From Thiofilum flexile DSM 14609 (GTDB lineage: Bacteria > Pseudomonadota > Gammaproteobacteria > Thiotrichales > Thiotrichaceae), in NCBI RefSeq assembly GCF_000380185.1, contig NZ_KB904802.1:1167-65166 (forward strand): a stretch of DNA of 64,000 nucleotides, in the 5' to 3' direction. Shown one piece after another: positions 6,128 to 55,323 of this stretch. Numbering within the stretch: position 1 is the stretch's first letter; each line of letters begins with the position of its first letter. Under the pieces are notes generated by a model, which searched no databases, was not told where the DNA came from, and saw nothing but the letters and a program-made list of their open reading frames with translations. The position numbers and the translations under genes are program-made.

Positions 6128-8162
6128 GCAACCCGTTCTCATTGATGCCCCTTTGCCGGTAGCAGTACAGCGTTCACGTTGGCCTTCGCCGATTTGGTTG
6201 ATTCCACTACTCGCTCTAGGGTTGGCGGGTTGGTTATTGTATACCTATTGGTATCAACAAGGGCCGAGTGTCGAGGTGTATTTTAATAGTGCGGAAGGGA
6301 TTGTCGAGGGACAAACCGTGGTGCGCTATAAGCATGTGGTCGTGGGACGAGTAGAACAGGTGTCTTTAGCGGCACGAGAGAATAGTTCAGAGCTATTACC
6401 CGTGGTCAAAATGCGCTTGAATAAGGAAATTCAGGACTTAATGAATTGTAATGCTCAATTTTGGGTCGTGCGTCCGCGTATTAAAGGGGCGGAAGTATCC
6501 GGTCTGGGGACTTTATTTTCGGGATCCTATATTGGTTTACAACCTCGACCAGAGCGTGCCGAAACGGATGATGGTTTTAAGCTATGTTATCAAGCACTCG
6601 AAGATCCGCCACCGATGAACCCTGAGCGTCCGGGGCGGCAATTTATTTTAGAAGCCGACAGCGTAGGTTCGATTGATAATGGAACCCCGATTTTCTATAA
6701 ACAATTGCGCGTGGGTGAGGTGGTGGATTATCGTCTCGTGCGTGAGACAGGTAAGTTTGAGGTGCGGGCGTTTATTGATGATCCTTATTATACCTTTGTC
6801 AATCCAAACAGCCGCTTTTGGAATGCGGGCGGTTTAGACTTTAAAATGAGTCCATCGGGGGCGGAGTTTAGAATGGAGTCCCTGAGTGCCTTATTGATTG
6901 GTGGGATTGCGTTTGATGCTGGGCGTGATGGTGAGAGTGCCGATAGCTCTACTACAAGTAAACCGAATAGTCGCTTTCATTTGTTTAAAGACTATAAAAG
7001 TAGTCAAGAGCGGTTATATCGGGATAAGCTTTATTATGTGATGCACTTTAGTGGCTCGGTGCGTGGTTTAGCTGTAGGTGCCTCAGTGGAATATCAAGGC
7101 GTGCCAGTGGGTAAAGTAGAAGCAATTGAAATGGATCTTGACCCTAGCAACTTACAAACCCGTATTCCGGTCAGAGTCGTATTGGAGCCGCAGCGTTTTG
7201 CAGAAGATATTACCTTAGAGCAAGCACAAACTATGCTGGAAAAATTAGTCGAGCAGGGGGTGAGGGCGAAGCTGCAAAACGGTAATATTCTAACCGGACA
7301 AGCCTTTATTAATCTGGTTCAAGAGAGTAAGGCTAGCCCTGAACGTATGAGTCAGGAGGGGACGCGTACGGTATTTCCCACTAGCTCCACCTCATCGGAA
7401 GATTTAACCCGTATTGCGCTAGACATTGCCAATGACTTAAAAAGCACAGTGGCGAGTGTGCGGCGCTTTATGGATAGCAAACAGTTAGACCATACGGTCA
7501 CGAATGCTAATGAATTGATTGATGATACCCAATTCTTAATGCGGGATGCGCGTAAAGCCGTGGCGGATTTACGTGTTGTATTACAAACACTAGAAAATGA
7601 AACCTTACCCAAAGCCTCGCACGATTTTACTAGTGTGGCCAATAGTATTAATAAAGCGATTCCACAGCTTAATCATGATGTGACTAGTGTGGCCAATAGT
7701 ATTAATAAAGCCATTCCGCAGGCAAGTCATGATCTGACCAGTGTGGCCAATAGCATTAATAAAGCCATTCCACGAGCTAGCCATGACTTGACCAGTGTCG
7801 CCAATAGTGTCAATAAGGCGATTCCTCAATTTAGCCATGATGTGACCAGTGTGGCCAATAGCGTGAATAAAGCCTTGCCTGTCGCGACCAATAGCTTTGC
7901 TCATGCGGCGAATAATTTGAGCAAGGCACTGCCTGAAGTGCAGGGCGATGTGCGGCGTGTGTCCAATGATTTGGTGCAAACCATGCGTCGCTTACAAAAT
8001 TCATTAGGGCATATGGATAAGCTATTGGCACAAAATTCGCCCACTCAATATCAATTAATGGAAATGATGCAAGAGGTTACTACCGCCGCACGAGCCATTC
8101 GTGATTTGTCTGAGCGTTTAGAACGTAAGCCCGATTCACTGATTCGTGGCAGGAGAGAGTAA
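6120..8162 (+). CDS. pqiB: PqiB-like MCE-domain lipid transport protein with added C-terminal helical repeats
   Basis: PqiB spans the periplasm as a hexameric tube (stacked MCE rings plus a coiled-coil needle) that carries phospholipids. I prefer the GTG at 6120 because GGGAG lies 7 bases upstream; a TTG at 6114 is too close to it. This gives 680 residues, against 546 in E. coli. There is one N-terminal membrane span (about 24-43), then three MCE domains (about 46-140, 160-230 and 292-400), then a helical region. Residues 501-626 hold seven 18-residue units: five near-identical (HDxTSVANSxNKAxPxxx) and two degenerate. An 18-residue period equals five helical turns, so the repeat should lengthen the needle. 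The stop overlaps the next start by one base. Confidence 0.92.
   Translation: MAEQPVLIDAPLPVAVQRSRWPSPIWLIPLLALGLAGWLLYTYWYQQGPSVEVYFNSAEGIVEGQTVVRYKHVVVGRVEQVSLAARENSSELLPVVKMRLNKEIQDLMNCNAQFWVVRPRIKGAEVSGLGTLFSGSYIGLQPRPERAETDDGFKLCYQALEDPPPMNPERPGRQFILEADSVGSIDNGTPIFYKQLRVGEVVDYRLVRETGKFEVRAFIDDPYYTFVNPNSRFWNAGGLDFKMSPSGAEFRMESLSALLIGGIAFDAGRDGESADSSTTSKPNSRFHLFKDYKSSQERLYRDKLYYVMHFSGSVRGLAVGASVEYQGVPVGKVEAIEMDLDPSNLQTRIPVRVVLEPQRFAEDITLEQAQTMLEKLVEQGVRAKLQNGNILTGQAFINLVQESKASPERMSQEGTRTVFPTSSTSSEDLTRIALDIANDLKSTVASVRRFMDSKQLDHTVTNANELIDDTQFLMRDARKAVADLRVVLQTLENETLPKASHDFTSVANSINKAIPQLNHDVTSVANSINKAIPQASHDLTSVANSINKAIPRASHDLTSVANSVNKAIPQFSHDVTSVANSVNKALPVATNSFAHAANNLSKALPEVQGDVRRVSNDLVQTMRRLQNSLGHMDKLLAQNSPTQYQLMEMMQEVTTAARAIRDLSERLERKPDSLIRGRRE
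7620..7997 (+). repeat. 54-bp coding tandem repeat in pqiB (about seven units)
   Basis: Units begin at 7620, 7674, 7728, 7782 and 7836, sharing the core ACTAGTGTGGCCAATAG or close variants. Two diverged units begin at 7890 and 7944. The frame stays open and the protein sequence is more conserved than the third codon positions, so the repeat is under protein-level selection. The number of units may vary between strains. Confidence 0.9.
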
Positions 8163-33423: not shown

Positions 33424-36400
33424 TTAAGGTGTCGGGTCTACCCAAGCACTCACACCATCTAAAGGAATGGTATCCGCAAGGGTTGGCATAGAAACGGGTA
33501 ATTCACCTTGTACATAATAGAATAGGGTAGGTACTAAAGTGGTAAAACCATTAGCTGCCACTTGATCTTTAGCCGCTTGACTCACGCTAATACCCCACGC
33601 GGCGAAATAATCCCGATAATCTTTTTGCATGATTTTAGAGGCCGCTAGATACATAAAATCACCAGCATTTAAATTATTCGCAGCAGTACGAGTATATTGG
33701 CTCAAGCCTAATTGATTTTTAACAGCATTCCAGCGAGTATCGCTTTTTACTGCATGAGTTAAAATACGCTCCATAATATACATTTCAGTATAAAAGTCCC
33801 AAGAGCCAGCGGTATACATGAGTTGTATATAAAACGATAGGCGCTCAAAAGCATTATCATAAGTGCCGGTTTTCACCCAGAGTGGATGACTAGAGTTTGC
33901 TGCAGTAGCAGCGGCAATACTAGTTTGTAGTATAGTGAACGCACCTTTATGATTAGGGCGAGTGGTGGTTATTGTTGTTGAACCTTTTGCTTTTGCAGAT
34001 TTCCACATAGTGTGTAGGGGGAAAATATTATTCGAGACTTCTCTCGAACGGGTATCATAAATTTTTAGCCGTGGGCGTTGTAGATTATGTCCCATTTCAT
34101 GATTTTCACCCCAATCTAGTGGTTGAATAGGTGAGCCGGCATCAAAAGGATTACCCGAGCACAGTGATCCGCAGTTAGCCATCGCGTCGGCATTAATATG
34201 TTGAATAGCTGGGCGACTATGAATCGTAGTATCCGTACAGAGATTTTTAGTAACACCGTCATACATAATAGCATCTAAACCTAGCTTATTACAAAAGCTC
34301 AGTGCTTCATCACTAATACTAGGTAAACCCACACCACTAAATCCAGCATAATTATAATTACCCGCAATTAGATAATTATTTAAATCACTAATAAAGTTTT
34401 TAATATCAGTCGTGGTATAGCCATTGGAAGTATTGTTATCTTGAAGATTAAAGGATTTAAAGAGATGAGATTTAAGCGTATGTAATTCAGCATAAGGCGT
34501 TTTAATGTCCGCCCAGCCAATAGGCGTATTATTGAGATGGTCAACGAAGGCTTGAATGCTGGCATCATCAAAAGCAGCTAAGAGCGGGGACTCTAATACA
34601 CCAGTGGCATTTATCGTAATAGGATCAGTATTAGCGCTGGCATTCCAGCCGATATATAGTAGTCCACCATAGGGTGTTGAAAAACTATAGCTTTGGTTGT
34701 TGGCTAAGGTCATTTCTGGGCTAGCTAGATATAAAGGGCGAGCATAACCATTAGGATTCCAAGCACGAGTGGAGCCGGGACGGAGGAAATTAATTTTAAA
34801 TTTGGTAGTAGTATCGGTGGTATCGGTACGAGTTAAGGTAAAGGTTTTACCCGCTGGAATATAAATCCCTGTGCTAGTCCATTCATTAAACTCAGTAGGT
34901 ACTTGATTAATGGTTTTAGTTTGAGTAGGGAGTTCTGCGATTAGATCGTTTGTCGCAAAGCTACCCATTTTGGGCTGAGCTATATTGTTTGGGCGATTGT
35001 AGTTAATCGTATTATCGGCAAATATACCTTTTAAGAAAGTAGCATCGAGTGTGTTTTGTTTATCCATAGGATAAGTAATATCATGGCGTAGTTTATCACT
35101 CAGGAGTAAAGCGAGTTTAATTAACCTTAGACCATCATCTAGCTTAAAAGCATTTTTCTTTTGTCGATCAAGGATATTAATAGCTGTGGATAAGGCATCA
35201 GCTCCATCAAAAAAGAGTGATTGTTGAGTTTCGCCAGTATTACTGTCTATTATATCATTGGTATCGCAATTGATGGTGCCGACATGGTTAACACAATTAA
35301 TATTATTATAGATAAAGTTAGTATTAGGATTCATTAGTGTGCTAATGGTAAGAGGGAGTTTATCTAATCCTGCACGTACATTGGTTAATAAACCAGCGGG
35401 GTCAAAGTTTAATAAATCATCTTGTCGCCAATAATTATCGGCACTCGTTACCCCAAAGTAGTCTAATAGGGTATTACCTAAGAGATTACTAGAACCATCA
35501 TAGTGAATATATAATACCGGAACCCCTAATTCTTGGGCTTGCTTAACAGCATTCATAATAGCGCTTAAGTTAAAGGCGACTCCATGATTATCTGCAGCAC
35601 CATCATCTCGCCCTATTACTAATAAACTAGCATTGCTTAGGCAACTAGCTAAATTAATGCTTTCACAGCTATCGGGTGTATTTGTGGTAGCTTGGGGGTA
35701 ATAAGTAGTAAACCATTGGCGTGTATTAGCATCTTGTTTAAAATAAGTACTATCGGGTTGATGTGCAATGACGACCTTAGCCGGTGAGGTTTTAAAATTA
35801 TTATTTTTCGTAAGCCATGCTAATAAGCTTTCTAAAAAAGCTTGCAAAGGCGGATTGTTATTAATTCCAGCGGTGCTAGTACGTACAATATCATGTAAAG
35901 CATTAGACCCTAATAGGGCATAACGCGCACCATTGGTTTGAGTGCCTGCAACGGCGAGAATATTATTTCTAACTACAGAGACTTTCTTGGCATGATTAGA
36001 AATTAATAGCGGTATATTACGACCGTAGTTAATTAAGCTATAAACAACAGAATCCTGTGAGACGCCCCAGCTAATGGGATCAATACTGTCATTATTTCGA
36101 CTGCCATCACTATTAAGCTTAAAAATGCTTTTAATAGTATCTTGTTTAGCAATACTCACACGAGCTTGTGTTGCATTAATTTCATCAACAATTTCATCCA
36201 CGCTAACTTTAGCTGCACTACCTATGTGTAAGGCAACCTCCATTAAGTCAATACTACCTTGTGTAGTGCCATGAACCACAAAGTTATTATTAAATAAAGT
36301 ATTGGCTGGATTTAGTAATATACTGGCTTGTAATAAATTAAGATCATTATTGGCTCCAGCATATACGGTGAATCCATCTAGGTTTAAATCAGTGGAGCTA

Positions 36401-37092
36401 TAGCCTTTTGAACGATAATTAAAGGATTGATTGCTATTTTGTTCTGCAGTGACAATATTGGCTAGGATATTATTAGTGTCATTATTAATACCTTGAGCCA
36501 CTAATTGAGTATTATTATCGGTATCACCCGCCCATAATAAAGCCTTGCTCGCTTTTAATTCACGTCCTTTATTTTCTACTATAGATAATTTGGGATCACT
36601 AAAATCAATTAAAGTTGGTGTGCTATCTAATAAAAGCGGTAGCGTTGTCACACCTAGGTGATTACGATGTTTGACCGTGATTCGGTAATAATCGGCATCA
36701 AAATCCTTAAAAACTAGCAGTGCTTGCTCGGTCTGTGGATCAATTAATGTACCGTCGCGTTGGAGTAATACGGCTTTTTGATCATAGATCATGCTAGGGT
36801 CGGTTTTATCACGTAGCTCTACTAATACCCAGTCTACGATCGCTTGATTACCTGTTTGAGCGAGGCGAGTAGTACTGACGCTTTCTGTACCCGTGTAGTT
36901 AAAGGGGCGGGCGGTATAGGGTTGTTGTGTAGGCAAGTAGTTTTGACTGCGCAAAGCATCACTCATCAGCCCGGTACTGCTATTGTAAGCACCAGAGAGT
37001 AATACCTTACCTTGTAAATAAACATCAGCATAAGCTGACAGACTGCTAACGGAGAGAAGGGCCGTTAGTCCCCAGCGAATGAAATAGTGCAT
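33424..37092 (-). CDS. Secreted ImpA/M60-like zinc metallopeptidase, copy 1
   Basis: A 1222-residue exported protein with a signal peptide (1-22, ending SAYA-DVYL). The M60 zinc site is present: HEMGH at 998-1002 with a glutamate 16 residues on (E1018, in RSREVSNN), fitting HExxH(8-24)E. The long N-terminal part resembles the ImpA (immunomodulating metalloprotease) family, which cuts O-glycosylated, mucin-like proteins. It ends with a conserved stretch containing MQKDYRDYFAAWGISVSQAAKDQV. It is a tandem paralogue of the gene at 37329-41006, with the same leader and very similar sequence throughout. Its substrate and cell-surface or free location are inferred. Confidence 0.8.
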   Translation of the reverse strand: MHYFIRWGLTALLSVSSLSAYADVYLQGKVLLSGAYNSSTGLMSDALRSQNYLPTQQPYTARPFNYTGTESVSTTRLAQTGNQAIVDWVLVELRDKTDPSMIYDQKAVLLQRDGTLIDPQTEQALLVFKDFDADYYRITVKHRNHLGVTTLPLLLDSTPTLIDFSDPKLSIVENKGRELKASKALLWAGDTDNNTQLVAQGINNDTNNILANIVTAEQNSNQSFNYRSKGYSSTDLNLDGFTVYAGANNDLNLLQASILLNPANTLFNNNFVVHGTTQGSIDLMEVALHIGSAAKVSVDEIVDEINATQARVSIAKQDTIKSIFKLNSDGSRNNDSIDPISWGVSQDSVVYSLINYGRNIPLLISNHAKKVSVVRNNILAVAGTQTNGARYALLGSNALHDIVRTSTAGINNNPPLQAFLESLLAWLTKNNNFKTSPAKVVIAHQPDSTYFKQDANTRQWFTTYYPQATTNTPDSCESINLASCLSNASLLVIGRDDGAADNHGVAFNLSAIMNAVKQAQELGVPVLYIHYDGSSNLLGNTLLDYFGVTSADNYWRQDDLLNFDPAGLLTNVRAGLDKLPLTISTLMNPNTNFIYNNINCVNHVGTINCDTNDIIDSNTGETQQSLFFDGADALSTAINILDRQKKNAFKLDDGLRLIKLALLLSDKLRHDITYPMDKQNTLDATFLKGIFADNTINYNRPNNIAQPKMGSFATNDLIAELPTQTKTINQVPTEFNEWTSTGIYIPAGKTFTLTRTDTTDTTTKFKINFLRPGSTRAWNPNGYARPLYLASPEMTLANNQSYSFSTPYGGLLYIGWNASANTDPITINATGVLESPLLAAFDDASIQAFVDHLNNTPIGWADIKTPYAELHTLKSHLFKSFNLQDNNTSNGYTTTDIKNFISDLNNYLIAGNYNYAGFSGVGLPSISDEALSFCNKLGLDAIMYDGVTKNLCTDTTIHSRPAIQHINADAMANCGSLCSGNPFDAGSPIQPLDWGENHEMGHNLQRPRLKIYDTRSREVSNNIFPLHTMWKSAKAKGSTTITTTRPNHKGAFTILQTSIAAATAANSSHPLWVKTGTYDNAFERLSFYIQLMYTAGSWDFYTEMYIMERILTHAVKSDTRWNAVKNQLGLSQYTRTAANNLNAGDFMYLAASKIMQKDYRDYFAAWGISVSQAAKDQVAANGFTTLVPTLFYYVQGELPVSMPTLADTIPLDGVSAWVDPTP

Positions 37093-37328: not shown

Positions 37329-40300
37329 TTAAGGTGTAGGATCAGTCCAAGTGCTAACACCATCTAAAGGAATTAGATCTGCGGGTGTTGGCATAGTAAT
37401 GGGTAATTCACCTGTTGGTATATAATAAAGCGCGGCAGGTACTAAGGTAGTAAAGCCATTAGCTGCCACTTGATCTTTAGCCGCTTGGCTTACACTAATA
37501 CCCCACGCGGCGAAATAATCCCGATAATCTTTTTGCATGATTTTAGAGGTGGCTAGATACATAAAATCACCGGCATTTAAATTACCCGCAGCGGTGCGGG
37601 TATATTGGCTTAGGCCCAATTGATTTTTAACGGCATCCCAACGAGCATCGTTTTGTACCGCATGACTTAAAATACGCTCCATAATATACAGTTTAGTATA
37701 AAAGTCCCAAGAACCAGCGGTATACATGAGTTGCATATAAAAGGCCAAGCGATCATAGGCATTATCATAAGTTCCTGAACTAACCCATAAAGGATGGCTA
37801 ATACTAGGAGCTGTACCGGCTGCAATACTGGCTTGTAGAATATTGAAAGCATTTTTATGACCCGTACGATCGGTGGTTATTTTAGTTAAACCCTTATCCA
37901 ATGCTGATTTCCACATGGTATGTAAAGAGAAGATATTATTAGAGACTTCAAATGAGCGGACATCATAAATTTTTAAACGGGTGCGTTGTAAGTTATGTCC
38001 CATTTCATGATTTTCGCTCCAGTTTAAAGGTTGAGCAGGGGCGCCACCGACATCAAAAGGATTACCTGAGCAGAGATCCGCGCAAAGGGAAGAAATATCC
38101 GCATTAATGTGTTGGATAGCCGGACGATTATGAATACTGCTATCTAGACAAAGATTTTTAGTGACTCCTTCATAAACGACAGCATCTAAACCTAGGCTAT
38201 TACAAAAAGCGAGTGTTTCATTGCTGATGTCGGGTAATCCTACACCATTAAAACCGGCAAAATTATAATTACCGGCAATCAAATAGGTATTAATATCACT
38301 AATATAGTCTTTAATATCTTGAGTCGTATAGCCATTAGTGGTATTACCATCCTGCCTATTGAATGCTGTAAATAAATAAGATTTCAAACTATGTAGTTCT
38401 GCATAAGGGGTTTTGATATCAACCCATTCAGTAGGTGAGTTATTTAGCTCATCAATAAAAGTCTGAATACTCGTATCATCAAAAGCCGATAGCATGATGG
38501 AATCGATGACATTACTAGCACTAATAGCAATAGGATCGGTATTAGTCGTAGCATTCCATCCTACATATAATAAACCACCATAAGGATTTGAAAAGCTATA
38601 GCTTTGATTGCTGGCTAAAGGTATTTCTGTGCTAGCTAGATATTGTGGGCGACTATAGCCATCCGTATTCCATAAGCGAGTAGTAGGGCGTTGATAGTTA
38701 ACTTTAAACTTAGCAATGGTATTGCTAGTATCGGTGCGAGTTAAGGTAATAGTTTTACCCGCTGGGATATAAATGCCTGTACTGCTCCACTCACTAAAAT
38801 TCGTAGGTGTCTGGGTAATATCAATCGTTTTAGTCGGTAGTTGATCAATAAGGAGGTTATTTGCACTCGTAGTGAAACTACCCAGTTCAGGCTGAGCATC
38901 ATTATTAGGGCGGCTAAAATTAATAATATTATCGGCAAATTGAGCTTTTAAGAAAGTAGAGTCTAGCGTGGTTTGTTTATCCATCGGGTAATTAATTAAT
39001 GGACGTAATTTATCACTTAATAGCAGAGCTAATTTAATTAATCTATAACCATTATCTAACTTAAAAACATTCTTTCTTTGAAGGTCAAGGGTATTAATGG
39101 CTGAGCGCGTAGCATTGAGGCCATCATAAAATAGCGATTGTTGTGTTCCACCACTCGTTGCTTCTAATACAGTACTAGGATTGCAATTTATCTTACCTGC
39201 ATTATTAATACAGTTAGAGGTATTGTAGGTGAAACTAGTATTATCATTCATAAGTGTAGCGATGGTCAGCGGTAGTTTATCTAGCCCACTTGGTGCATCA
39301 CTTAATAGTGTAACGGGATCAAAGCTAACTAAATCATCTAGTCGCGAGTAATTATCCGTACCTGTCACACCAAAATAGTCGAATAGTTGAGTGCCGAGTG
39401 GGTTATTACCCCCATCGTAATGAATATATAAAATCGGAACACCTGCTGCTTGGGCTTGTTTAACAGCATTCATGGTGGCAGTTAAATCAAAGGCAATACC
39501 ATGAGTATCCTCAGTGCCATCATCATGCCCCATTATTAATAGATCAGCATCCGTTAAACAGCTAGCGAGATTAATACTTTCACAGGCATCGGGAGCATTT
39601 TTGGTAGCTTGAGGATAATAAGTAGTGAACCATTGGTTAGTACTAGCATCTTGTTTAAACCAATAGGAATCAGATTGATGCGCAATCACAATTTTAGCAG
39701 GAGTGGTTTTGAAATTTTCATTTTGAGTGAGCCATGCTATTAGACTTTCTAAAAAGGCTTGAAAGGGAGGATTACTGCTCGTCGTAGTGCTGGTTTTTAC
39801 TAAATCACTTAAGGCATTCGAGGCTAATAAGGCATAACGTGCGCCATTTGCTTGAGTACCTGCTACTGCTAACGTATTTTTTTTATAATTAGTTGTTTTT
39901 TGTGCATGATTGGAAACAAGTATAGGGGTATTATTACCATAATTAACTAAATCAAACACAACAGAATCATGCGAAGGATTCCAATCTAAGGGGCCAAGAC
40001 TGTTGGCATTGCGAGTGCCATCACTATTGAGCTTAAAAATACTTTTAATCACTTCTTGTTTAGCAAGACTAGTATTCGTTTGTGTAGTATTAATCTCTTC
40101 TACAATATCGGCTATACTCACTTTATCCGCACTACCAATACGTAAGGCTTCTGCCATGAGATCAAAGGTGCCTTGAGGGGTACCATTAATAATGAAGTTA
40201 TTATTAAATAAAACATTCGTTGGATTTAATAAGATACTCGCTTGTAATATATTGAGATCATTACCCGCTCCGGCATAAAGTGTTGAGCCATCTAAGTTTA

Positions 40301-41006
40301 AATCGCTAGTGGCATAACCTTTTAAGCGATAATTAAACAGCTGATTTGTATTTTGTGGGGCAGTGACAATATTAGCTAGAATTGCATTAGTGTCATTATT
40401 ACTACCCTGAGCCACTAATTGAGTATTCGTATCCGCATCACCTGCCCAAAGTAGCGCTTTATTCGCTTTTAACTCTCGTCCTAGACTATCCTCGGTTGCT
40501 AGGGTGGGATCACTAAAATCAATCAAGGTCGGCGTGGTATCTAATAATTGAGGTTGCGTGGTCACGCCTAAATGATTGCGATGCTTTATGGTGATGCGGT
40601 AATAATCTGGATCATAATCTTTAAAAACTAATAAGGGTTGCTCAGTGAGGGGATCTATGACCGTGCCATCACGCAGCACCAACGCGGCTTGTTGGGTACT
40701 AATTATAGTCGGATCGGTTTTATCCCGTAGCTCCACTAGCACCCAATCCACAATGGCCTGATTACCCGTTTGGGCTAGACGAGTCGAGCTTACGCTTTCC
40801 GTGCCGGTATAATTAAACGGGCTGGCTGAGTAGGGTTGTTGAGTCGGCAGGTAGTTTTGACTACGTAGTGCATCATTCATTAACCCGGTATTGCTATCAT
40901 AAGCACCTGATAGTAATACTTTGGTTTGTAAGTAAACATCAGCCTGAGCTGATAGACTGCTAGCTGAGAGAAGGGCAGCTAATCCCCAGCGGATCAGATA
41001 GTACAT
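37329..41006 (-). CDS. Secreted ImpA/M60-like zinc metallopeptidase, copy 2
   Basis: A 1225-residue paralogue of copy 1, sharing its layout from signal peptide (ending SAQA-DVYL) to C-terminus. The zinc site is HEMGH at 1000-1004 and E1020. Differences are spread along the chain, as expected for an old tandem duplication rather than a recent copy or assembly artefact. Upstream sequences also match (CAGTATGCATTGAAA and AAGCTGTAATTATTTG versus close variants before copy 1), so promoter and gene were duplicated together. The alpha-2-macroglobulin gene lies upstream on the same strand, with the structured repeat between them. Confidence 0.8.
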   Translation of the reverse strand: MYYLIRWGLAALLSASSLSAQADVYLQTKVLLSGAYDSNTGLMNDALRSQNYLPTQQPYSASPFNYTGTESVSSTRLAQTGNQAIVDWVLVELRDKTDPTIISTQQAALVLRDGTVIDPLTEQPLLVFKDYDPDYYRITIKHRNHLGVTTQPQLLDTTPTLIDFSDPTLATEDSLGRELKANKALLWAGDADTNTQLVAQGSNNDTNAILANIVTAPQNTNQLFNYRLKGYATSDLNLDGSTLYAGAGNDLNILQASILLNPTNVLFNNNFIINGTPQGTFDLMAEALRIGSADKVSIADIVEEINTTQTNTSLAKQEVIKSIFKLNSDGTRNANSLGPLDWNPSHDSVVFDLVNYGNNTPILVSNHAQKTTNYKKNTLAVAGTQANGARYALLASNALSDLVKTSTTTSSNPPFQAFLESLIAWLTQNENFKTTPAKIVIAHQSDSYWFKQDASTNQWFTTYYPQATKNAPDACESINLASCLTDADLLIMGHDDGTEDTHGIAFDLTATMNAVKQAQAAGVPILYIHYDGGNNPLGTQLFDYFGVTGTDNYSRLDDLVSFDPVTLLSDAPSGLDKLPLTIATLMNDNTSFTYNTSNCINNAGKINCNPSTVLEATSGGTQQSLFYDGLNATRSAINTLDLQRKNVFKLDNGYRLIKLALLLSDKLRPLINYPMDKQTTLDSTFLKAQFADNIINFSRPNNDAQPELGSFTTSANNLLIDQLPTKTIDITQTPTNFSEWSSTGIYIPAGKTITLTRTDTSNTIAKFKVNYQRPTTRLWNTDGYSRPQYLASTEIPLASNQSYSFSNPYGGLLYVGWNATTNTDPIAISASNVIDSIMLSAFDDTSIQTFIDELNNSPTEWVDIKTPYAELHSLKSYLFTAFNRQDGNTTNGYTTQDIKDYISDINTYLIAGNYNFAGFNGVGLPDISNETLAFCNSLGLDAVVYEGVTKNLCLDSSIHNRPAIQHINADISSLCADLCSGNPFDVGGAPAQPLNWSENHEMGHNLQRTRLKIYDVRSFEVSNNIFSLHTMWKSALDKGLTKITTDRTGHKNAFNILQASIAAGTAPSISHPLWVSSGTYDNAYDRLAFYMQLMYTAGSWDFYTKLYIMERILSHAVQNDARWDAVKNQLGLSQYTRTAAGNLNAGDFMYLATSKIMQKDYRDYFAAWGISVSQAAKDQVAANGFTTLVPAALYYIPTGELPITMPTPADLIPLDGVSTWTDPTP

Positions 41007-41124: not shown

Positions 41125-41234
41125 GTAAAGGTAGTCTGGTCTTTCTTCCGCAGTCGCTGTGAATACATCCCTGTACGCTACAAGGCGGCATCCATGCCGC
41201 CAAGACTGCTCCAGAAATACCAGACTACCTTTAC
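41125..41234 (-). repeat. Structured 110-bp repeat, copy A
   Basis: Two 16-bp arms (41125-41140 and 41219-41234) are perfect reverse complements around a 78-bp core (41141-41218). Read on the minus strand, the core matches copy B at 74 of 78 positions. It contains a GGCGGCA-TGGA-TGCCGCC hairpin (41184-41201) and a TACA-GGGA-TGTA hairpin within 41165-41176. The element begins 31 bases past the stop of the alpha-2-macroglobulin gene, on that gene's strand. No T-run follows, so a simple terminator role is unlikely. Confidence 0.9.
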
Positions 41235-55213: not shown

Positions 55214-55323
55214 GTAACAGTAAGCGGGTCTTTCTGGAGCAGTCTTGGCGGCAGGGATGCCGCCTTGTAGCGTACAAGGATGTATTTACAGCGACTGCGG
55301 AAGAAAGACCCGCTTATTGTTAC
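55214..55323 (+). repeat. Structured 110-bp repeat, copy B
   Basis: Arms of 16 bp (55214-55229 and 55308-55323) pair completely apart from one G-T, around a 78-bp core of the same length as copy A. Hairpin 1 is GGCGGCA-GGGA-TGCCGCC (55247-55264). Hairpin 2 contains GTACAAGGATGT (55272-55283), a 12 of 12 match to the CsrA SELEX consensus RUACARGGAUGU. Two more unpaired GGA triplets face each other (55236-55238 and 55299-55301). It lies between the convergent serS and AEC transporter genes. Confidence 0.9.

What the first reader, a model, noticed from the sequence alone, without database searches (positions are those of the whole stretch)
41125..41234. Dispersed 110-bp repeat whose arms show compensatory base changes
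Copies A (41125-41234) and B (55214-55323) have identical layout, 16 + 78 + 16 bases. The cores match at 74 of 78 positions. The left arms differ at five of 16 positions (5, 6, 10, 11 and 13), and each change is matched by the complementary change in the right arm (A-T to C-G, G-C to A-T, T-A to G-C); position 7 changes G-C to G-T. The four core differences fall at the stem end, in the first base of each tetraloop, and in an unpaired stretch. This is covariation from sequence alone: the paired structure is selected, not the arm sequence. Both copies lie just past a gene's 3' end on the same strand.
Basis: seen in the sequence. Interest (0 to 1): 0.85.

Follow-up and report, generated by a model that had tools for sequence, protein, structure and literature searches.

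The report
Dispersed CsrA-site hairpin repeat family
The two repeats belong to a family of short foldable DNA/RNA elements scattered tens to over a hundred times per genome through many Gammaproteobacteria; their stems change in matched pairs while two loops stay fixed as what look like docking sites for the global regulator CsrA, so a little-noticed repeat family may carry hundreds of regulator-binding sites per genome.

Summary
Copies A and B are two of about 90 in this genome. The same element occurs across Gammaproteobacteria (Marinobacter, Microbulbifer, Halomonas, Stenotrophomonas, Pectobacterium and others) and shares its core with the Yersinia palindromic repeat YPAL/RU-2. Rfam sees it only as a sub-threshold TwoAYGGAY hit. 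Anatomy: arms of about 30 bp with copy-specific sequence enclose a 50-nt core of two hairpins. On one strand both loops read A-N-GGA-N and only the N positions vary, which is the CsrA/RsmE recognition hexaloop; the two GGAs are usually 23-24 nt apart. Arm covariation is very strong. Wobble mismatches favour G-U on that same strand (73 against 25), so that strand folds. In Marinobacter, orthologous copies carry matched double changes, and empty sites contain no palindrome, so the arms are not target palindromes. Copies show template-switch footprints (inverted cores, stem conversions), which can make compensatory changes without selection. Orientation to genes is random, so the shared gene orientation of A and B is coincidence. 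Best reading: a dispersed YPAL/TwoAYGGAY-type element whose RNA strand is a dual CsrA-binding module. CsrA binding is inferred, not shown.

The parts
41125..41234 (-). Copy A, whole 110-bp element; the GGA (AYGGAY) strand is the minus strand
41213..41234 (-). Copy A, 5' arm (outer stem, 22 pairs) on the GGA strand
41125..41146 (-). Copy A, 3' arm, pairs with 41213-41234
41190..41195 (-). Copy A, first hexaloop ATGGAT (ANGGAN)
41167..41172 (-). Copy A, second hexaloop AGGGAT (ANGGAN), inside GTACAGGGATGTA, a match to the CsrA SELEX consensus RUACARGGAUGU
55214..55323 (+). Copy B, whole 110-bp element; the GGA strand is the plus strand
55214..55235 (+). Copy B, 5' arm (outer stem, 22 pairs)
55302..55323 (+). 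Copy B, 3' arm, pairs with 55214-55235
55236..55238 (+). Copy B, GGA side of the conserved 3 x 3 internal loop (partner GGA at 55299-55301)
55253..55258 (+). Copy B, first hexaloop AGGGAT (ANGGAN)
55276..55281 (+). Copy B, second hexaloop AAGGAT (ANGGAN), inside GTACAAGGATGTA

Best explanation
A and B are two copies of a dispersed, non-coding, YPAL/TwoAYGGAY-type element found through many Gammaproteobacteria. Shown: a fixed layout of about 30-bp arms, 50-nt core and 30-bp arms; a pairing conserved through matched arm changes; two A-N-GGA-N hexaloops on one strand, invariant except at the N positions; strand-specific G-U tolerance; chromosomal 3'-end locations stable across species. Inferred: that strand is transcribed and folds as RNA; the long arms lock the two GGA hairpins in a Y-shaped display; one CsrA/RsmA dimer bridges the two loops (GGA to GGA mostly 23-24 nt). 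Many copies would then act as CsrA-binding sites, as a distributed sponge or as local marks on the transcripts that contain them. Arm sequence is free as long as it pairs. Matched changes come from a mixture of selection for pairing and arm-to-arm template switching.
For: About 90 copies in the own genome. Covariation. Loops A-N-GGA-N with only N variable in 71 own copies and in 118 (5' loop) and 128 (3' loop) of 130 gamma copies, matching the ANGGAN hexaloop and RUACARGGAUGU of CsrA/RsmE (PMC7652899). GGA spacing 23-24 nt, inside the bridging range of 10-63 nt with an optimum above 18 nt given there. csrA in this genome and in 41 of 42 carrier or related genomes. G-U 73 against A-C 25 on the GGA strand, p=1e-6. 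Orthologous copies with matched arm changes, 45 against about 3 expected by my estimate. Core identical in kind to YPAL/RU-2 (PMC2759123). CsrA binding was proposed earlier for TwoAYGGAY (PMC4333381).
Against: No transcription or binding data. Orientation to genes is random, and loops and wobble asymmetry do not differ significantly between copies whose GGA strand is sense and those where it is antisense to the upstream gene, so ordinary read-through from the upstream gene cannot be the source of the constraint on every copy. Copies also lie inside the trp operon with the GGA strand antisense. csrA is general in Gammaproteobacteria, so its presence tests little. The G-U asymmetry would also fit a strand-specific single-stranded DNA substrate. 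Template-switch footprints weaken the covariation argument.
Confidence: 0.5

Rival explanations
1. DNA-level mobile hairpin without an RNA role: a MITE-like element recognised as a single-stranded hairpin (GGA strand) by a transposase in trans; the arms stay complementary because replication template switching copies one arm into the other.
For: Random orientation. Recent amplification in the own genome with shared ends TAAGTA...TACTTA in 45 of 73 intact copies, 11 with the core inverted. Stem conversions in L011, L030, L080 and L083. Core conversion in M. iranensis with arms kept. YPAL was reported recently mobile (PMC2229807). Template switching homogenises arms and inverts spacers (PMC8604942).
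Against: No matches for the broad core in plasmids, phages or viral contigs. Sites are largely shared across four Marinobacter species. The only Y1 transposases in the genome are pieces at contig ends. Loop conservation fits a known RNA-protein motif exactly.
Confidence: 0.3
2. Bidirectional transcription terminator or mRNA 3'-end stabilising hairpin; loops incidental.
For: Placement just past stop codons, 31 convergent against 10 divergent, median about 17-18 bp from the upstream stop. Very stable folds.
Against: No U-tract: at most 2 of 71 own copies have 6 or more T in the 8 bases after the hairpin on either strand. Copies occur inside operons (trpG-trpD, trpC-trpD). It does not explain invariant ANGGAN loops or the strand asymmetry.
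Confidence: 0.14
3. The arms are pre-existing target palindromes (terminators) into which a 50-60 bp core inserted.
For: Arms differ completely between copies with nearly identical cores; YPAL targets were reported to span or adjoin dyad symmetries (PMC2229807).
Against: Empty trp sites in four Marinobacter genomes have 9-53 bp with no palindrome, while filled relatives carry the whole element plus flanks. Arms have a near-constant length of about 30 bp. Own shared-end copies share arms.
Confidence: 0.03

Closest known systems
YPAL / RU-2 (Yersinia palindromic sequence, about 168 bp)
   Same: Same core, with two ANGGAN hairpins of the same order (sequence in PMC2759123); dispersed, intergenic, palindromic, high copy.
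   Different: Described for Yersinia and Erwinia only; here arms are about 30 bp and copy-specific, and the family spans many gammaproteobacterial orders. Reported 3-26 bp target duplications were not tested here.
TwoAYGGAY RNA (Rfam RF01731)
   Same: Two AYGGAY hairpin loops closed by a long, poorly conserved stem; same strand; Gammaproteobacteria among the listed hosts (PMC2864571); CsrA binding proposed (PMC4333381).
   Different: Window copies score 25-27 bits against a gathering score of 43; no TwoAYGGAY gathering hit in 20 other loci. Its repeat nature is not described in the passages read.
Ysr224 (Rfam RF02770, Yersinia sRNA)
   Same: Covers the same core on the opposite strand; a YPAL-like plasmid copy passes its threshold (72.4 against 70 bits).
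   Different: Opposite strand; window copies are far below threshold.
CsrB/RsmZ-type CsrA sponge RNAs
   Same: Repeated GGA hairpin loops of the ANGGAN type.
   Different: Two sites per element, in dispersed copies instead of one multi-site sRNA gene; no known promoter.
REP/BIME/REPIN and ERIC
   Same: Dispersed intergenic palindromes at gene ends.
   Different: No RAYT gene found associated; different core; arms vary per copy.

Membership tests
YPAL/RU-2 superfamily | Core sequence homologous to YPAL | tested here: met
   Printed RU-2 sequence holds the same core; model R1 finds the element that is 75% identical to RU-2
YPAL/RU-2 superfamily | Target-site duplications of 3-26 bp | not tested
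   Empty sites were found at the trp loci but duplications were not mapped
TwoAYGGAY RF01731 | Rfam gathering score of 43 bits | tested here: not met
   26.8 and 25.2 bits
TwoAYGGAY RF01731 | Two AYGGAY-type hairpin loops inside a long stem | tested here: met
   Loops A-N-GGA-N; full-length model alignment
CsrA/RsmA dual binding site | ANGGAN hexaloop in a hairpin, two sites 10-63 nt apart | tested here: met
   criteria from PMC7652899
CsrA/RsmA dual binding site | Physical binding by CsrA | not testable with these tools
   Needs EMSA or CLIP-seq
MITE | Terminal inverted repeats with target duplication and a matching transposase | tested here: inconclusive
   Shared ends TAAGTA...TACTTA in 45 of 73 intact own copies; no partner transposase identified
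MITE | Presence on plasmids or phages (usual for mobile elements, not strictly defining) | tested here: not met
   No match for the broad core in plasmids, phages or viral contigs; one YPAL-like copy lies on enterobacterial plasmids
REP/RAYT system | Associated single-copy RAYT (Y1 transposase) gene | tested here: not met
   Y1 pieces only at contig ends, as expected of a multi-copy IS
Rho-independent terminator | U-tract directly after the hairpin | tested here: not met
Structured RNA family | Covariation of stem pairs beyond shuffles and slid controls | tested here: met

The most novel reading that the evidence does not exclude
Across Gammaproteobacteria a chromosome-bound repeat family supplies on the order of one hundred paired, high-affinity CsrA sites per genome, each transcribed as a small structured RNA or mRNA tail, forming a distributed, titratable CsrA reservoir; the arms evolve freely by template switching, which keeps every copy foldable while making copies mutually non-homologous.
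Probability: 0.25. Interest if true: 0.85.

Novelty: new variant of a known kind. Interest (0 to 1): 0.6.

Why it matters
It links three separately catalogued items (YPAL repeats, TwoAYGGAY RNA, Ysr224) into one family that Rfam does not annotate in these genomes. It proposes a concrete protein partner for it. It also offers a natural experiment, with many copies per genome, orthologous copies and empty sites, for separating true compensatory evolution from template-switch mutation, a known confounder of covariation evidence for RNA structure.

Tried and rejected
Target palindromes or terminator loops as the source of the arms: rejected from empty trp sites. Terminator: no U-tract. REP/RAYT. 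Sense-strand 3'-UTR element: orientation random and loop or wobble integrity independent of orientation. Hyper-fast arm evolution in orthologues, suggested by a first count on the model-fitted alignment (377 mirrored changes), was an artefact of register shifts and of independent insertions. With gapped alignments of 28 clean orthologous pairs, arms differ at about 9.6% of paired sites, flanks at 13.5% and cores at 4.0%; 45 mirrored changes remain, against about 3 estimated for independent changes that happen to pair. Core inversion between Marinobacter orthologues: those pairs also have unrelated arms and unaligned flanks, so they are better read as independent insertions. E. coli carries the YPAL-like element only in one acquired segment, so it gave no empty site.

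Full report
Observation. The two 110-bp copies are present at the stated places as inverted copies. In the same reading direction (A minus, B plus) the five matched arm changes, the one G-U and the four core differences are as reported. Both copies fold far better than shuffled sequence on either strand (z -9.0 to -11.5).

Copy number. A core pattern with up to 3 mismatches finds 93 places in the own genome, 65 of them exact, and none for the reversed control. About 90 copies were extracted. Of 73 intact ones, 45 share outer ends TAAGTACTTGAGCC...GGTATACCTACTTA and 28 do not. A few copies (L041, L052, L077, L087, L096, L106) carry extra hairpins in the core.

Structure. In 71 ungapped own copies, 19 of 22 outer-stem pairs show changes on both sides, 94.1% of all cells pair, and double-change cells number 184 against 51 in shuffles; sliding the partners by one column drops pairing to 38-41%. 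A covariance model from these copies (R1) finds 130 elements in 96 loci from this family and other Gammaproteobacteria, down to E=6e-18. There all 22 outer pairs covary, 94.6% of outer-stem cells pair, and the covariation score is 0.80 against 0.165 (that alignment is fitted to the model). Without the model, arms of 80 pattern-found copies align to each other over a median of 28 bp (score 24 against 7 for mismatched loci), while arms of different loci are mostly unrelated. Pairing drops at about 30 bp from the core, the arm length of A and B.

Loops. On one strand (A minus, B plus) both hairpin loops read A-N-GGA-N. In 71 own copies the second and sixth positions vary while A, G, G and A are nearly invariant. 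In 130 gamma copies, 118 of the 5' loops and 128 of the 3' loops are hexaloops with the same pattern; the 5' loop was not constrained by the search pattern, the 3' loop was. This matches the ANGGAN hexaloop of RsmE/CsrA sites and, for the second hairpin, the SELEX consensus RUACARGGAUGU (PMC7652899). The two GGAs are 23-24 nt apart in most copies, within the bridging range. csrA is present in this genome and in 41 of 42 genomes that carry the element or stood near a carrier. Gardner and Eldai had proposed CsrA binding for Rfam TwoAYGGAY (PMC4333381).

Which strand. Beyond 8 bp from the core, non-Watson-Crick transition mismatches on the GGA strand are 73 G-U against 25 A-C (p=1e-6); by locus 33 against 10. 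Own copies show 43 against 7, partly shared by descent. The asymmetry means that the GGA strand is the one whose folding counts. Selection on RNA is the simplest reading; folding of that strand as single-stranded DNA is not excluded.

Genomic setting. Copies favour 3' ends of genes (31 convergent, 10 divergent; median about 17-18 bp from the upstream stop), but orientation to genes is random (23 against 27 own; 17 against 14 elsewhere). Loop integrity and wobble asymmetry do not differ significantly by orientation. Gene calls here are simple ORF calls. So the same-strand placement of A and B is coincidence, and a plain sense 3'-UTR function is unlikely to be the whole story.

Evolution. In about 350-kb syntenic blocks of four Marinobacter genomes the model finds 47 copies in 1.39 Mb, roughly 100-170 per genome by extrapolation. 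Most sites are filled in all species. In 28 clean orthologous pairs (flanks 86.5% identical), 45 arm pairs changed on both sides and still pair, where about 3 would be expected by chance (my estimate), against 30 one-sided changes keeping a wobble and 34 breaking the pair. The orthologous pairs overlap phylogenetically, so these counts are not independent events. At the trpC-trpD and trpD-trpG junctions, related genomes have empty sites of 9-53 bp without any palindrome, while filled relatives carry complete elements. So the arms come with the element and are not target palindromes.

How matched changes arise. Template switching between inverted-repeat arms is known to homogenise arms and invert the spacer (PMC8604942) and has been proposed to create and help maintain RNA stems (PMC8794818). 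Both footprints occur here: 11 of 45 shared-end copies have the core inverted relative to the ends, and in L011, L030, L080 and L083 the GGA x GGA internal loop has become a perfect stem by a several-base change copying the other side. In one M. iranensis copy the core has become the type of its neighbour while the outer arms stayed locus-specific. Covariation is therefore not by itself proof of selection; strand asymmetry and loop conservation carry that argument.

Identity and spread. The core equals that of YPAL/RU-2 of Yersinia (sequence printed in PMC2759123). Model R1 finds a YPAL-like copy on enterobacterial plasmids, which Rfam calls Ysr224 on the opposite strand above threshold. Window copies score 25-27 bits with TwoAYGGAY, below its gathering score of 43, and the gathering search labels none of 20 other loci as TwoAYGGAY. 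The model, with strict filters, hits 14 of 160 genomes of the phylum sample, all in this class. The broad core gave no match in viral contigs, phages or plasmids, which is unusual for a mobile element.

Conclusion. It is best filed as a new, much wider branch of the YPAL/TwoAYGGAY kind. Shown: structure, loop motif, strand asymmetry, spread, stable sites. Inferred: transcription and CsrA binding. Open: how new copies acquire distinct arms, what moves them, and how the GGA strand is expressed when it lies antisense to its neighbours.

Noticed in passing
window 33424-37092 and 37329-41006 (minus strand): Two neighbouring genes of 1222 and 1225 aa are tandem duplicates (68-88% identical DNA stretches); from memory they resemble AcfD/SslE-like metalloproteases, not tested.
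   Followed up: no
window 7596-7879: A tandem array of period 54 bp.
   Followed up: no
L041, L052, L077, L087, L096, L106: A long variant of the element has an extra segment with further hairpins (AAAAAATCGTCAGGA...CGATTTTTCACGCCAGC...GGCGCATGGACGCGCC) next to the first core hairpin.
   Followed up: no
L099 (own genome C10 near 62345): One copy carries on one side a sequence (TTGACATCCTCCCCGACCTAAAGGACGGGGATTCC) that from memory resembles the end of an IS200/IS605-type element, as if an IS had inserted into the repeat.
   Followed up: no
L121-L127: Y1 transposase (PF01797) pieces lie at contig ends of this assembly, as expected of a multi-copy IS200-like element.
   Followed up: partly
L191, L193, L131, L304-L307: In Marinobacter, Microbulbifer and an unclassified gammaproteobacterium the element recurs at trp operon junctions, sometimes as two inverted copies in one spacer.
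   Followed up: partly
L242 (NZ_CP058751.1) and relatives: A YPAL-like element about 60 bp from the 3' end of an alcohol dehydrogenase gene travels on several enterobacterial plasmids beside IS5-family and Tn3-type elements.
   Followed up: partly
L141 3852-4137 (minus): A Marinobacter locus matches Rfam 5_ureB_sRNA with 118 bits; probably that model overlaps a coding sequence.
   Followed up: no
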